From: Actinomycetota bacterium
GTDB lineage: Bacteria; Actinomycetota; Acidimicrobiia; Acidimicrobiales; Acidimicrobilacustridaceae
Reading direction: 5' to 3'
NCBI GenBank assembly: GCA_009705225.1
Contig: WLCQ01000002.1
Location: 1 to 53,430 of the forward strand
Length of the DNA stretch: 53,430 bases
The notes under the pieces were generated by a model. That model was not told the origin of the DNA. It saw only the letters and a list, made by a program, of their open reading frames with translations, and searched no databases. Below are positions 11,019 to 14,853 of this stretch, piece by piece. Position 1 is the first letter of the stretch; each line of letters starts with the position of its first letter. The position numbers were made by a program, and so were the translations under genes.

Positions 11019-11026
11019 CGGCTAAC
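11013..11026. repeat. 7-bp tandem duplication containing both stop codons
   Basis: GGCTAAC occurs twice in tandem. The first copy supplies TAA (11016-11018) of the plus-strand gene and the second supplies the minus-strand TAG (11022-11024) of the PhnZ-like gene. Confidence 0.7.
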
Positions 11027-11573
11027 AGCTGGCGGCGAGGCGGTTGAGCATCTCGATATGGCTGTCGAGGGGTTCGACCACGAGTCCCTCGACCTTGCCG
11101 AGATCGTCCCAGCGGCGCAGGGAGCAGGCATCGGCGAACCCGGGGTTGGTCTCGAAGCTGGCCAGTTCCTCGGCAGACATCGGACCGCCCTGACGCCCGA
11201 GGCTCGCGAGTGACCCTGCGGAGAGCCCGGCGATGTACCCGGGTTCGGTGGCGGCGAGGTAGCGCTTGGCGCGCACATGCAACGCAATGGGAGCAGTGAC
11301 GGCGGCCGGGAAGAGCACCGAAAGAGCCGCTGCGCCGACGTCCTCATGGCGTTGCGAGATTGGTTGCTCGACAGTGCCACCGGCATTGAGATCGATGAGG
11401 TGTCCGATGTCGTGGAGCAGCGCGGCGGCGGTGAGCGCATCGGTCTCACCCGAGGAGCGGGCGTGGGCTGCGCATTGCAGGGCGTGGTCGAGTTGGGTGA
11501 TGTCCTCGTCGTAGTGATCGGTTCCCCACCTGTGGAAGAGGTCGAGGATCGAGTCGATCGAATCGAAGGTCAT
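11022..11573 (-). CDS. phnZ: PhnZ-like HD-domain di-iron oxygenase (phosphonate degradation)
   Basis: 183 residues, the length of PhnZ-type proteins. The HD ligands are visible as His30, His54-Asp55, His76, His99 and an Asp in LRRWDD (156/157). Their spacing matches what I recall for PhnZ (34, 58, 59, 80, 104, 161). HVRAKRYL and the QGGPMSAEE/LRRWDDLGKV segments are hallmarks of phosphonate-associated HDIG proteins. PhnZ oxidatively cleaves the C-P bond of an alpha-hydroxyphosphonate, releasing phosphate. The start ATG overlaps the stop of the PhnY-like gene (11570-11573), so the two are coupled. The lid segment reads H20-Y-D-E23, so substrate may differ from 2-aminoethylphosphonate. Assignment is by motif and neighbourhood. 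Confidence 0.8.
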   Translation of the reverse strand: MTFDSIDSILDLFHRWGTDHYDEDITQLDHALQCAAHARSSGETDALTAAALLHDIGHLIDLNAGGTVEQPISQRHEDVGAAALSVLFPAAVTAPIALHVRAKRYLAATEPGYIAGLSAGSLASLGRQGGPMSAEELASFETNPGFADACSLRRWDDLGKVEGLVVEPLDSHIEMLNRLAASC

Positions 11574-12346
11574 CGGATGATGGTTCCTTCGAAATCGCCG
11601 ATGAGCGAGATGCGACCGCTCCCGTTGTCGTCAGCGGCGAACTCGGCCATCTTCTGCTCGTAATAGGCCTCGCGGAGATCACCCTCACGGGCAGCGTTGT
11701 AGGTGGGATACATGGCCCGGCGACTCGCTCGTGAATTGTTCGGTCCGCTGCGATGCGGAGTGCGGGAGTGGAACCACAAGGTCTGGCCGGCCCACATGGG
11801 TACGGGCGTCCATTCGAACCTCTCAGCGAGATCCTCACGGATGCATCCGCGGTCGTTCATCGGGAGTACCTCGGCGTGCATTCCTGACACCACTTCGAGG
11901 CAGCCGTTGTCGAGCGTGACATCGTCGATCGCCACAAGGCACGAGACATGCGTGTCGACGAAGCGGTATGCCGGCGCATCCTGATGAGGAGCGAAACCGG
12001 CGCCGCCGATGAGCTTGTAGTTGATCTTCTCCTTGTAGAGCACTGCCCGCTCGCCCAACAGCATCGACGCAGTGTCGAGAAGTTCGCCCCGGGTGAGTAC
12101 CTCGCGCAGGCCGGCATGGAACGGCAGGAAGTTCTCGGTGCGGCACAGCTGCGGGCCGTGCGCGGTCATCTCACGATGGTGCAGGACACCGGACTCATCG
12201 GGCCATGAGGCCAACTCGTCGACCCAGTCCCGCAGCTCGGCGGTGACCTGGGGATCAAAGGGTTCGGTGAGCACCCAACCAGTGCGGCGGAAGTGCTCCA
12301 CCGCCCCGGGACCGAGTTCATGGACGGTCATGTCGGCGGCGTTCAC
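11570..12346 (-). CDS. phnY: PhnY-like Fe(II)/2-oxoglutarate dioxygenase (PhyH family)
   Basis: 258 residues, PhyH fold. The iron triad is seen as HQD in GFAPHQDAPAYRF and the distal His in TPHRSGPNNS, with the following Arg placed to bind 2-oxoglutarate. The KEKINYKLIGGAGFAPHQDAPAY stretch resembles PhnY/TmpA-type phosphonate hydroxylases. Proposed role: alpha-hydroxylation of a phosphonate, whose product the coupled PhnZ-like enzyme cleaves. The GTG start at 12346 is favoured because TAGCGT lies exactly six bases upstream (leaderless pattern); ATG 12331 is the alternative. Divergent from the phosphonate-ester-hydrolase-like gene. Confidence 0.8.
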   Translation of the reverse strand: MNAADMTVHELGPGAVEHFRRTGWVLTEPFDPQVTAELRDWVDELASWPDESGVLHHREMTAHGPQLCRTENFLPFHAGLREVLTRGELLDTASMLLGERAVLYKEKINYKLIGGAGFAPHQDAPAYRFVDTHVSCLVAIDDVTLDNGCLEVVSGMHAEVLPMNDRGCIREDLAERFEWTPVPMWAGQTLWFHSRTPHRSGPNNSRASRRAMYPTYNAAREGDLREAYYEQKMAEFAADDNGSGRISLIGDFEGTIIR

Positions 12347-12352
12347 GTTGTC

Positions 12353-12358
12353 ACGCTA
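12353..12358 (-). promoter_or_regulatory. Candidate leaderless -10 (TAGCGT) for the PhnY/PhnZ pair
   Basis: Minus-strand TAGCGT six bases before GTG 12346. It lies back-to-back with TACGCT (12399-12404) on the plus strand, 40 bases between, so the two -35 regions overlap and the cassette could be co-regulated. Confidence 0.45.
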
Positions 12359-12398
12359 CCGGCCGCGATCTGGCCGACCCCGACACCTTCGTCTGTCC

Positions 12399-12404
12399 TA
12401 CGCT
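12399..12404 (+). promoter_or_regulatory. Candidate leaderless -10 (TACGCT) for the phosphonate hydrolase operon
   Basis: TACGCT ends six bases before ATG 12411, the start of an eight-codon frame that runs into the TTG start of the sulfatase-fold gene. Confidence 0.45.
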
Positions 12405-12410
12405 CGGCCG

Positions 12411-12437
12411 ATGGTCTGCATCGGGAACCAGCGTTGA
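12411..12437 (+). other. Eight-codon mini-ORF overlapping the TTG start of the next gene
   Basis: ATG 12411 encodes MVCIGNQR and stops at TGA 12435-12437, which overlaps TTG 12434-12436 (sequence TTGA). With TACGCT six bases upstream of its ATG, the mRNA would begin at the mini-ORF, suggesting translational coupling to the weakly initiated TTG gene. Not proven to be translated. Confidence 0.4.
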
Positions 12438-13849
12438 ACTTCCTCATCATCACCCTCGATGAGTTCCGGGGCGACTCCATGTCGTGTGCCGGACATCGCG
12501 TGGTCCGAACACCGGCACTCGATGCGCTTGCCTCGCAGGGTGTGCGCTTCGCCCGTCATTACAGCCAGGCTGCGCCCTGTGCCCCCGGTCGTGCGGCGCT
12601 CTATACGGGCACGTATCAGATGAACAACCGGGTTGTTTTCAACGGTTCACCGCTCGATGACCGTTTCGACAACATGGCCCGTGCGGCCCGGCGCGCCGGA
12701 TATGCGCCGGCGCTGTTCGGCTACACCGATCAGGCCATCGACCCGCGAACAGTCGACTCGGATGATCCCCGACTGTTCACCTACGAGGGTGTGCTCCCGG
12801 GCTTCGACTGCATCGTGGATCTCACCGATCAGCGTCTGCCCTGGGCTGAGTGGGTACGGGCCAACGGCTTCGAAATCCCCGAAGACCCCGACGACGCACT
12901 GGCCACCGAGTCGGAGCGTCCCGCTGAGTTCGGGGTGAGTGCCTTCCTCACGAACGAGTTCCTCGACTGGCATGCACAGCAGAACGGCGCGTGGTTCGCG
13001 CATGTGAGTCACCTTCGCCCGCATCCGCCCTTCAGCGCCGCAGGGCACTGGGCCGAGGCCTTCGATCCAGCGGACGTGGACCTTCCGATTCCGACCCCGG
13101 AACCGGCGCATGCGCTCCATGAACTGTTGCTCTCGTTCCCGTTCAGTGCATCCCCGGCCGATGAAGCGGGCGTGCGCGAGATGCGAGCCCAGTACTACGG
13201 CATGATCGGCGACGTCGATGAACAACTGGGTCGGATCTGGCAGGCGCTGCGTGATGCCGACCAATGGGATGACACGGTGATCATCGTCACCAGTGATCAC
13301 GGCGAGCAGTTGGGCGACCACGGACTGCAGCAGAAGATGGGTTGGTTCGAGCAGAGCTACCACGTGCCGGCGATCATCCGAGACCCCCGACGTCCTGCGG
13401 GTCACGGCAGCACCGTGAACGCGTTCACCGAGAACGTCGATCTCTTCCCCACGTTGTGCGATGCCATGGCGATCGATATTCCTCGTCAGGTCGATGGAAG
13501 ACCACTCACCGAGTTCCTCGACGGCGGCGAACCCACCGACTGGCGCACCCATGCCCACTGGGAATTCGACTGGCGGTTCTTCATGCCCGGCGCCAACACC
13601 TCTGGTTGGCCCGATGATCGTCGGGGCGCCCACAACCAACTCGCCGCACAGCGCTCGGACACCACCGGCTTCGTGCAGTTCGCCGATGGCACCTCGCTGC
13701 TCTATGACCTTGTTGCCGATCCGACCTGGTCGTCGCCGATCGCTGATCCAGCCATGGCATTGACGGAAGCACAGCAGATGCTTGTGTGGCGCGCCGAGCA
13801 TGCTGAGCGAACACTCACCGATCAGTTCCTGTACCCGAGGCCGTCATGA
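12434..13849 (+). CDS. Sulfatase/alkaline-phosphatase-fold hydrolase, phosphonate monoester hydrolase-like
   Basis: 471 residues from TTG 12434. The formylglycine signature CAPGR lies at residues 49-53 inside PCAPGRAALYTGTYQMNNR, so Cys49 should be matured by a formylglycine-generating enzyme (none in this window). Metal ligands are expected at Asp9 (TLDEFRGD) and in TSDHGEQLGDHG. The NGSPLDDRFDNMARAARRAGY and LFGYTDQAIDPRT segments resemble phosphonate monoester hydrolases/phosphodiesterases more than arylsulfatases. TTG is chosen because the fold's first strand (NFLIITLDE) begins there; the frame remains open upstream but overlaps the PhnY-like gene. Next to phnY/phnZ, it could release free phosphonate from its esters. 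It overlaps the next gene by ATGA. Confidence 0.8.
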   Translation: MNFLIITLDEFRGDSMSCAGHRVVRTPALDALASQGVRFARHYSQAAPCAPGRAALYTGTYQMNNRVVFNGSPLDDRFDNMARAARRAGYAPALFGYTDQAIDPRTVDSDDPRLFTYEGVLPGFDCIVDLTDQRLPWAEWVRANGFEIPEDPDDALATESERPAEFGVSAFLTNEFLDWHAQQNGAWFAHVSHLRPHPPFSAAGHWAEAFDPADVDLPIPTPEPAHALHELLLSFPFSASPADEAGVREMRAQYYGMIGDVDEQLGRIWQALRDADQWDDTVIIVTSDHGEQLGDHGLQQKMGWFEQSYHVPAIIRDPRRPAGHGSTVNAFTENVDLFPTLCDAMAIDIPRQVDGRPLTEFLDGGEPTDWRTHAHWEFDWRFFMPGANTSGWPDDRRGAHNQLAAQRSDTTGFVQFADGTSLLYDLVADPTWSSPIADPAMALTEAQQMLVWRAEHAERTLTDQFLYPRPS

Positions 13850-14853
13850 GCACTGACCGCTTCGGTTGGCGTCATCGTCCCGGGGTAAAGGTCCTCGGCC
13901 TGTGCGTCGCGGTTCTTGCGGTAGTCATCCTTTCGAGCGCGTGTTCGTCGGAGTCGCCCGCGGCGACAACGGATTCAACGACCTCCTCGGTGTCGGTTGC
14001 GCCCACATCAACTGTCGCCTGTTCGACGCGAACCACCGAGCAGTACGCGCAGATCCCAGGTGTCGATCCGAACCTCACCAGTCTCGAGGTCTTCACACCA
14101 GCGGCGGAGGAGGATGGTTGTGTCGGACGCCCACTCGTGGTGTGGATTCATGGTGGGGGATGGACCAGCGGTGATCGCAGTGAGTACCTCGATGACAAGG
14201 TCGCATTGTTCACTGATGCAGGATTCGTCTTCGCGACCATCAACTACCGGCTCACCGACGCAGCTGTAGCCCCGCCGGCACCGCAGTACCCGGTGCATGA
14301 TCAGGACTCCGCCGACGCGATCGCGTGGCTCGTGGAAAACGCAGAAACCTATGGGATCGACGCGCGTCGGATCGCCGTGCTCGGCCACAGCGCGGGTGGT
14401 GGAATCACTGCAGCGATCTCAACCGATGAGACGTACCTCGGCCGTCATGGGCTGCCCCTCAGCACCATCCGCTGTGCGGCATCCATGGACGGCGAGGGAT
14501 ACGACGTGGTCGCCGGTGCGTCGTCAACGAACGCGTTCGCGGCGGGTACCTATCAGAACGCATTCGGCACTGATCCTGCTCTCTGGGCTGAGGCCTCACC
14601 GATTCGGCACGTTGCGGCCGGTAAGGGGATCCCGAAATTCTTCATCGCTGCTCGCGGTGCTGAATGGCGCATGGAGCAGCACAACGCGTTCATCGATGCG
14701 CTCGACGCTGCTGATGTGGTGACGACGGTGCTCGACGTGACCACGCTCGAACACGCCGACCTCACGACCCAGATCGGCCGGCCCGACGACACCCTCGTCA
14801 CTCCGGCCCTCATGGACTACCTCGGCGGTTGCTTCACGAGCCGCCGCCGCTGA
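13846..14853 (+). CDS. Lipoprotein alpha/beta-hydrolase (HSL-type esterase)
   Basis: 335 residues. Signal sequence with a hydrophobic run (about 14-29) and a lipobox ending LSSAC, predicting lipidated Cys33; then a Ser/Thr-rich linker and an alpha/beta-hydrolase domain. The oxyanion motif HGGGW and nucleophile elbow GHSAGGG place it in the hormone-sensitive-lipase-like group; the catalytic His is probably in LEHADL. It should be anchored outside the membrane. Its ATG overlaps the stop of the phosphonate-hydrolase-like gene (13846-13849), so the two form one operon. It might de-esterify an organophosphonate-containing molecule before uptake, which is inference from context. Confidence 0.82.
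   Translation: MSTDRFGWRHRPGVKVLGLCVAVLAVVILSSACSSESPAATTDSTTSSVSVAPTSTVACSTRTTEQYAQIPGVDPNLTSLEVFTPAAEEDGCVGRPLVVWIHGGGWTSGDRSEYLDDKVALFTDAGFVFATINYRLTDAAVAPPAPQYPVHDQDSADAIAWLVENAETYGIDARRIAVLGHSAGGGITAAISTDETYLGRHGLPLSTIRCAASMDGEGYDVVAGASSTNAFAAGTYQNAFGTDPALWAEASPIRHVAAGKGIPKFFIAARGAEWRMEQHNAFIDALDAADVVTTVLDVTTLEHADLTTQIGRPDDTLVTPALMDYLGGCFTSRRR

What the first reader, a model, noticed from the sequence alone, without database searches (positions are those of the whole stretch)
11022..14853. Compact divergent phosphonate-ester to phosphate cassette
Four genes form two coupled pairs read from one short divergent promoter region. One pair is a PhyH dioxygenase with HQD...H and a PhnZ-type HD oxygenase (ATGA overlap). 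The other is a CAPGR formylglycine hydrolase resembling phosphonate monoester hydrolases and a lipoprotein esterase (ATGA overlap). Motifs are seen directly. PhnY/PhnZ oxidative C-P cleavage is established. The pathway 'ester cleavage outside or inside, hydroxylation, C-P cleavage to phosphate' for this locus is inference. The pairing of PhnYZ with a PMH-type enzyme and a surface esterase, without transporter or C-P lyase, looks unusual.
Basis: partly seen in the sequence, partly recalled or inferred. Interest (0 to 1): 0.75.

Follow-up and report, generated by a model that had tools for sequence, protein, structure and literature searches.

The report
Three-gene phosphonate-ester-to-phosphate cassette
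A freshwater-type actinobacterium carries, side by side, the two enzymes that oxidatively break carbon-phosphorus bonds and a hydrolase of the kind that cuts phosphonate esters; this pairing recurs in relatives in three different arrangements, so the three probably form one route from esterified phosphonates to phosphate without releasing methane.

Summary
Three form a recurrent unit; the fourth does not.

HD (11022-11573) is a PhnZ-family oxygenase. PhyH (11570-12346) is its PhnY-type partner, 43-46% identical to six planctomycete methylphosphonate hydroxylases that exceed NCBI's equivalog cut-off. The + strand hydrolase is a D-type phosphonate monoester hydrolase (PMH), not an arylsulfatase; it starts at TTG 12434.

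PMH-PhyH-HD is adjacent in every genus mate sampled (5/5). It is also adjacent in another genus of the family, in two genomes of another family with a divergent HD clade, and in a Lake Baikal genome where it is one operon between unrelated genes. The lipoprotein esterase is absent from all of these.

The genomes lack C-P lyase and any above-cut-off PhnE permease. Most also lack every known formylglycine generator, so the PMH's maturation is unexplained.

Best reading: an imported phosphonate monoester is cut by PMH, hydroxylated by PhyH and split by HD to phosphate plus formate (if methylphosphonate). The substrate and the order of steps are inferred. No paper in the library names PMH and PhnZ together. 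New variant of a known kind.

The parts
11022..11573 (-). PhnZ-type HD-domain mixed-valent di-iron oxygenase (183 aa); predicted to cleave an alpha-hydroxyphosphonate to phosphate
   Evidence: TIGR03276 198 bits; PDB 6npa TmpB 2.7e-30, 4mlm PhnZ 1.2e-24; ligand set H30, H54-D55, H76, H99, D156 invariant in 12 relatives; Y21-D-E23 loop as in Gimesia-type PhnZ
11570..12346 (-). PhnY-type Fe(II)/2-oxoglutarate dioxygenase (PhyH family, 258 aa; GTG start, alternative ATG at 12331); predicted to hydroxylate the alpha carbon of a phosphonate
   Evidence: PF05721 94 bits; NF052437 251 bits, curated cut-off 500; H121-x-D123...H198; 43-46% identity to planctomycete PhnY over the NF052437 cut-off; ATGA overlap with HD
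12347..12433 (.). divergent promoter region with two opposite TAnnnT -10-like elements (12353-12358 for PhyH-HD, 12399-12404 for PMH)
   Evidence: Recurrence by eye in most of the aligned relatives; no sigma-70 consensus pair found
12434..13849 (+). D-type phosphonate monoester hydrolase / phosphodiesterase (PMH, PehA family, 471 aa, no signal peptide seen, CAPGR nucleophile motif)
   Evidence: PehA NF045661 396 bits; PDB 4uph 3.3e-118, 2w8s, 2vqr above arylsulfatases 4upl/4upi; RlPMH residues D12 C57 R61 N78 Y105 H218 D324 H325 K337 kept, D at 107, E at 13
13846..14853 (+). lipoprotein-like alpha/beta-hydrolase esterase (335 aa); overlaps PMH stop but is a local addition, not part of the conserved cassette
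   Evidence: BD-FAE / Abhydrolase_3; no ortholog beside PMH in any relative

Best explanation
A three-enzyme phosphorus-scavenging cassette. A small phosphonate monoester is imported by an unidentified carrier. The cytosolic PMH cuts its P-O ester bond, giving an alcohol and a free alkylphosphonate, most likely methylphosphonate. The PhyH enzyme hydroxylates the alpha carbon, and the HD enzyme splits the C-P bond to phosphate plus formate, so no methane is made. Shown: families, active-site residues, recurrent linkage in three layouts, no C-P lyase. Inferred: catalytic activity of each protein, methylphosphonate as the core substrate, PMH acting first on an ester of the same phosphonate. The lipoprotein esterase is not part of it.
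For: HD and PhyH fall in PhnZ and PhnY families, with pairing and ligands intact. Closest characterised kind by sequence is the Gimesia methylphosphonate pair: six planctomycete genomes exceed the NF052437 cut-off (505-565 bits), their PhnY is 43-46% identical to the window's, and the neighbouring PhnZ has the same 3-residue YDE loop, whereas aminophosphonate PhnZ and TmpB have YxxE. PMH diagnostic residues are met. Linkage: 5/5 genus mates, G127, G245, G045, L165, L166, L174, L184, L185, L188, L197, and L218 as one operon between unrelated genes. The HD clade of G245/G045 is separated from the window's by a 99% branch, so PMH joined such pairs at least twice. By random placement about 0.01 adjacent pairs are expected among the 36 genomes holding both genes; at least two lineages of that sample, plus L218, have them. 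PMH and PhnZ co-occur across the order outside the genus, odds ratio 4.8, p 9e-7, not corrected for kinship. PhnJ absent from 13 cassette genomes.
Against: PMHs hydrolyse phosphodiesters too, so linkage to PhnYZ does not fix the substrate. Most PMH orthologs in the order are not beside PhnYZ. HD and PhyH miss the curated equivalog cut-offs. No aminophosphonate-type PhnY sequence was at hand for contrast. No importer is identified. Known formylglycine generators are missing in most cassette genomes.
Confidence: 0.5

Rival explanations
1. The PMH is a phosphodiesterase for small phosphate diesters and shares only phosphate-starvation control with PhnYZ: two parallel phosphorus-scavenging activities, not consecutive steps.
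For: PMHs of Burkholderia and Rhizobium are reported as specific for both phosphonate monoesters and phosphodiesters (PMC5649143). R. johnstonii PMH lies among sugar ABC transporter genes with no PhnYZ nearby. Most PMH orthologs in the order are unlinked to PhnYZ.
Against: PMH is fixed beside PhyH-HD in three layouts, including a bare three-gene operon, more than shared control alone would usually need.
Confidence: 0.28
2. The phosphonate is 2-aminoethylphosphonate (or another aminophosphonate), released from a lipid or glycan ester, giving glycine plus phosphate rather than formate.
For: 2-Aminoethylphosphonate is the commonest biogenic phosphonate (PMC8154272 abstract). Gimesia PhnZ itself also cleaves the hydroxylated aminophosphonate (PMC10574752). 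The HD scores are near-equal for the methyl- and trimethylamino-type models, 149 versus 147 bits.
Against: Of phosphonate-type models the PhyH matches only the methylphosphonate hydroxylase, though whether an aminophosphonate PhnY model exists in that library was not checked. The HD loop is YDE like the planctomycete proteins, not YxxE.
Confidence: 0.17
3. The reader's full four-gene pathway, with the surface esterase opening an ester outside the cell before PMH.
For: ATGA overlap of esterase and PMH. In one other family a different esterase overlaps the PMH start in six genomes.
Against: Esterase absent beside PMH in all genus mates and in L165, 90% identical in PMH; no sequence similarity to the other family's esterase at 1e-5.
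Confidence: 0.04
4. Chance adjacency or inherited gene order with no functional link between PMH and PhyH-HD.
For: Within the genus the whole neighbourhood is conserved, so those cases are not independent.
Against: In G127 and L218 the flanking genes differ while the three genes stay together; G245 and G045 have another order and a different HD clade.
Confidence: 0.01

Closest known systems
Gimesia maris PhnY/PhnZ (methylphosphonate to formate and phosphate)
   Same: PhyH plus HD pair, 43-46% identity to six planctomycete PhnY over the NF052437 cut-off, YDE loop, no C-P lyase needed
   Different: No PMH within the stretch of about 1.5 kb held on each side of those planctomycete genes; the window proteins are below the curated equivalog cut-offs
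HF130 PhnY/PhnZ (2-aminoethylphosphonate) and TmpA/TmpB
   Same: HD di-iron oxygenase family and ligand set
   Different: YxxE loop in both versus YDE; those systems are described as enzyme pairs with no ester hydrolase
Phosphonate monoester hydrolases of Rhizobium, Burkholderia and Ruegeria (PehA/PMH)
   Same: All catalytic residues; D at the RlPMH Thr107 position as in most PMHs
   Different: Glu at position 13 instead of Gln in the window's subclade; genome lacks known formylglycine generators; linked to PhnYZ, whereas the Rhizobium and Ruegeria plasmid copies read here are not
PMH plus C-P lyase in marine Sulfitobacter (Sosa et al. 2017, PMC5649143)
   Same: PMH proposed to free phosphonates from esters of dissolved polysaccharides
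   Different: C-P lyase releases methane or ethylene; in the cassette genomes PhnJ is absent. The link reported there is presence in the same genomes, not one gene cluster

Membership tests
PhnZ / phosphonate-degrading HD oxygenase | H...HD...H...H...D di-iron ligand set | tested here: met
   H30, H54, D55, H76, H99, D156 invariant in 12 relatives, aligned with PhnZ and TmpB
PhnZ / phosphonate-degrading HD oxygenase | TIGR03276 curated cut-off 214.6 bits | tested here: not met
   198 bits; only 2 of 298 genomes of the order pass
PhnZ / TmpB aminophosphonate type | YxxE substrate loop | tested here: not met
   Loop is Y21-D22-E23, one residue shorter, as in Gimesia-type PhnZ
PhnZ / phosphonate-degrading HD oxygenase | C-P cleavage of an alpha-hydroxyphosphonate | not testable with these tools
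   needs enzyme assay
PhnY methylphosphonate hydroxylase | Fe(II)/2OG facial triad and adjacency to PhnZ-type HD | tested here: met
   H121-x-D123...H198, overlap with HD
PhnY methylphosphonate hydroxylase | NF052437 equivalog cut-off 500 bits | tested here: not met
   251 bits; six planctomycete genomes pass with 505-565
Phosphonate monoester hydrolase (PMH) | Tyr at RlPMH 105 and Asp/Thr at 107 (Lys/His in arylsulfatases) | tested here: met
   Y and D, criterion from PMC5488252
Phosphonate monoester hydrolase (PMH) | CxPxR nucleophile, Asn78, metal ligands | tested here: met
Phosphonate monoester hydrolase (PMH) | PehA equivalog cut-off 900 bits | tested here: not met
   396 bits
Phosphonate monoester hydrolase (PMH) | Cys matured to formylglycine | tested here: inconclusive
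   CAPGR present, but no FGE or anSME found in own genome
C-P lyase pathway | PhnJ | tested here: not met
   absent from 13 cassette genomes
PhnCDE phosphonate transporter | PhnE permease over cut-off | tested here: not met
   none over cut-off in 8 genomes; PhnD and PhnC not tested

The most novel reading that the evidence does not exclude
A dedicated, methane-free pathway for esterified phosphonates that gives PMHs a physiological substrate, run by a PMH that becomes active without any known formylglycine-generating enzyme (an unknown maturase, or an unmodified cysteine nucleophile).
Probability: 0.3. Interest if true: 0.75.

Novelty: new variant of a known kind. Interest (0 to 1): 0.52.

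Why it matters
Marine dissolved organic matter holds methyl- and 2-hydroxyethyl-phosphonate as esters of polysaccharides, and the enzyme freeing them has only been postulated (PMC5649143). A conserved PMH-PhnY-PhnZ cassette would join ester cleavage to oxidative C-P cleavage in one testable unit, offer a natural role for PMHs, and mark a sink for methylphosphonate that does not yield methane. It occurs in genomes whose named relatives include Lake Baikal and, judging by isolate names, other lakes and reservoirs.

Tried and rejected
Hydrolase start at 12435 (wrong frame; searches failed, corrected to 12434). Hydrolase as arylsulfatase: rejected by residues and PDB ranking. Esterase as a cassette member: rejected by absence in relatives. 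PMH and PhnZ on shared plasmid records: none of the 37 and 28 records is shared. Planctomycete search centred on a locus id failed and was rerun with a genome handle. Literature: no paper holds both 'phosphonate monoester hydrolase' and 'PhnZ', and none pairs phnZ with pehA. PhnZ structure paper not held. No structure prediction was run, because sequence homology already settled the folds.

Full report
WHAT IS THERE. The window holds, on the minus strand, HD (11022-11573) and PhyH (11570-12346), and on the plus strand a sulfatase-fold hydrolase and an esterase (13846-14853). Both pairs overlap by ATGA. The hydrolase ORF as listed begins with a GTG inside PhyH; alignment with relatives places the real start at TTG 12434, where several relatives have ATG. 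The divergent gap is then 87 bp. In that gap two TAnnnT elements in opposite directions (12353-12358 and 12399-12404) recur in most of the aligned relatives, by eye. A sigma-70 consensus scan found nothing, so the promoters are suggested, not shown.

FAMILIES. HD: TIGR03276 198 bits, Gimesia PhnZ1 model 149 bits, TmpB model 147 bits; in PDB only TmpB and PhnZ match. PhyH: Pfam PhyH, and in NCBIfam the methylphosphonate hydroxylase model at 251 bits against a cut-off of 500. Hydrolase: PehA 396 bits; PDB order is 4uph (3.3e-118), 2w8s (B. caryophylli PMH), 2vqr (R. leguminosarum PMH), 4upk, and only then the arylsulfatases 4upl and 4upi. PMC5488252 gives Tyr105 and Asp/Thr107 (RlPMH numbering) as the PMH signature against Lys/His in arylsulfatases. 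The window has Tyr and Asp, plus Cys57, Arg61, Asn78, His218, Asp324, His325 and Lys337; position 13 is Glu instead of Gln in the window's subclade. It is a D-type PMH. It starts MNFLIITLDEF, with no sign of a signal peptide, and is probably cytosolic.

WHICH PHOSPHONATE. Their PhnY is 43-46% identical to the window's PhyH, and the neighbouring PhnZ has a Y-D-E loop, as the window's HD does. PhnZ and TmpB, which act on aminophosphonates, have YxxE, whose Glu contacts the substrate amine (PMC8177086). This leans towards methylphosphonate but does not prove it. No aminophosphonate-type PhnY was available for comparison, and Gimesia PhnZ also takes the hydroxylated aminophosphonate (PMC10574752).

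IS THE LINKAGE REAL. Sixty neighbourhoods of PhnZ matches in the order were read. PMH-PhyH-HD stands together in the window, all five genus mates, and G127 of another genus whose flanking genes differ. G245 has PMH>HD>PhyH on one strand, and G045 (another genus of that family) the same order. In a scan of named genomes the triad occurs again in L165, L166, L174, L184, L185, L188 and L197, and in L218 (Acidimicrobiia, Lake Baikal) as a single operon PMH>PhyH>HD whose neighbours on both sides look unrelated. The HD tree separates G245/G045 from the window's clade by a 99% branch, so PMH was joined to such a pair at least twice. Among 298 genomes, 82 have a strong PhnZ match, 62 a PMH and 36 both. 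Random placement predicts about 0.01 pairs within 500 bp, and at least two independent lineages of that sample have one, with L218 a further case outside it (lineage counting is mine). Co-occurrence outside the genus has odds ratio 4.8 and p 9e-7, without correction for kinship. Most PMH orthologs lie elsewhere, in mixed company: beside glycoside hydrolase family 3 genes in L148 and L154, and overlapping an Abhydrolase_3 esterase in six genomes of one family. The R. johnstonii PMH lies among sugar ABC transporter genes. These contexts fit a sugar-linked ester, weakly.

WHAT IS NOT PART OF IT. The lipoprotein esterase has no counterpart beside PMH in any relative, including L165 with 90% identical PMH, where SDR and PMH are 70 bp apart. 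The flanking dehydrogenase, epimerase, SDR, hydrolase and aldo-keto reductase genes are genus synteny and vanish in G127, G245 and L218.

WHAT IS MISSING FROM THE GENOMES. PhnJ is absent from 13 cassette genomes. PhnE permeases are all far below cut-off in the eight genomes searched; PhnD and PhnC were not searched. FGE-type proteins (PF03781) are absent from the own genome, five genus mates, G127 and G245. An anaerobic-type maturase is present in G053 and G180 and partly in G226, but not in the own genome, G155 (99% complete), G246, G127 or G245. Across the order, 23 of 27 genomes with this PMH clade lack any PF03781 protein against 83 of 271 others, and 15 of 27 have neither kind of generator (my tally). 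The Cys is nevertheless conserved in every ortholog read. Replacing the nucleophile by Ser costs PMHs only about tenfold (PMC5488252), so an unmodified enzyme might still work. This is an open question.

MECHANISM. Most likely an imported phosphonate monoester is cut by PMH to the free phosphonate, PhyH hydroxylates the alpha carbon with O2 and 2-oxoglutarate, and HD splits the C-P bond with O2, giving phosphate and, for methylphosphonate, formate. Established elsewhere: PhnY/PhnZ chemistry and PMH chemistry. Shown here: homology, residues, linkage. Inferred: activity, substrate, order. Sosa et al. proposed that alkaline-phosphatase-like enzymes, among them a PMH, free methylphosphonate from polysaccharide esters before C-P lyase (PMC5649143), and Prochlorococcus PhnYZ was suggested to feed on such esters (PMC6581173). 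The cassette would supply both steps in one place, but a cytosolic PMH implies small imported esters, not intact polysaccharide.

VERDICT. Observation confirmed; interpretation partly supported: three genes, not four. I found no description of a PMH-PhnYZ cassette in the library. New variant of a known kind.

Noticed in passing
L204:7751-9877, L216:7765-10014, L241:3739-5865: In Sphingomonas, Gluconacetobacter and a Rhizobiales genome, PhnZ-type HD genes without any PhyH partner lie close to phospholipase C genes (L204 is phosphocholine-specific PLC, TIGR03396 714 bits): a possible second ester-cleavage plus HD pairing, perhaps for phosphonolipids.
   Followed up: partly
L230:8358-9779: In a Mariniblastus genome a PhnZ-type HD gene is next to an aminophosphonate oxidoreductase (TIGR03329 743 bits), with no PhyH nearby.
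   Followed up: partly
L248:5992-6552: On a Nostoc plasmid a PhnZ-type HD gene lies inside a C-P lyase operon between phnM-like and phnJ genes.
   Followed up: no
genomes: Fifteen of 27 genomes with the PMH clade have neither FGE nor anSME, although the nucleophile Cys is invariant: unexplained maturation.
   Followed up: partly
L155:7971-8921 and L157, L160-L163: An Abhydrolase_3-type esterase overlaps the PMH start by 4 bases in six genomes of one family (GTGA in L155), unrelated in sequence to the window's lipoprotein esterase at 1e-5.
   Followed up: partly
L148:10079-12295 and L154:6184-8928: PMH is followed on the same strand by a glycoside hydrolase family 3 gene in two genomes of one family, hinting at sugar-linked substrates.
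   Followed up: partly
several matches (e.g. G291:C128:17745-18236, open frame 1012 aa): Many PhnZ-type HD matches lie in open frames of 690-1012 aa: possible fusion proteins or only long open frames in high-GC DNA.
   Followed up: no
L117, L118: The PMH match in G246 and G226 is reported with one in-frame TGA; probably the natural stop near the end of the alignment, not checked.
   Followed up: no
L092:8168-9495, L150:7317-8497: In G245 and G045 the HD and PhyH are divergent (HD loop lacks the usual Tyr; PhyH branch length 2.9), so their substrate may differ.
   Followed up: partly
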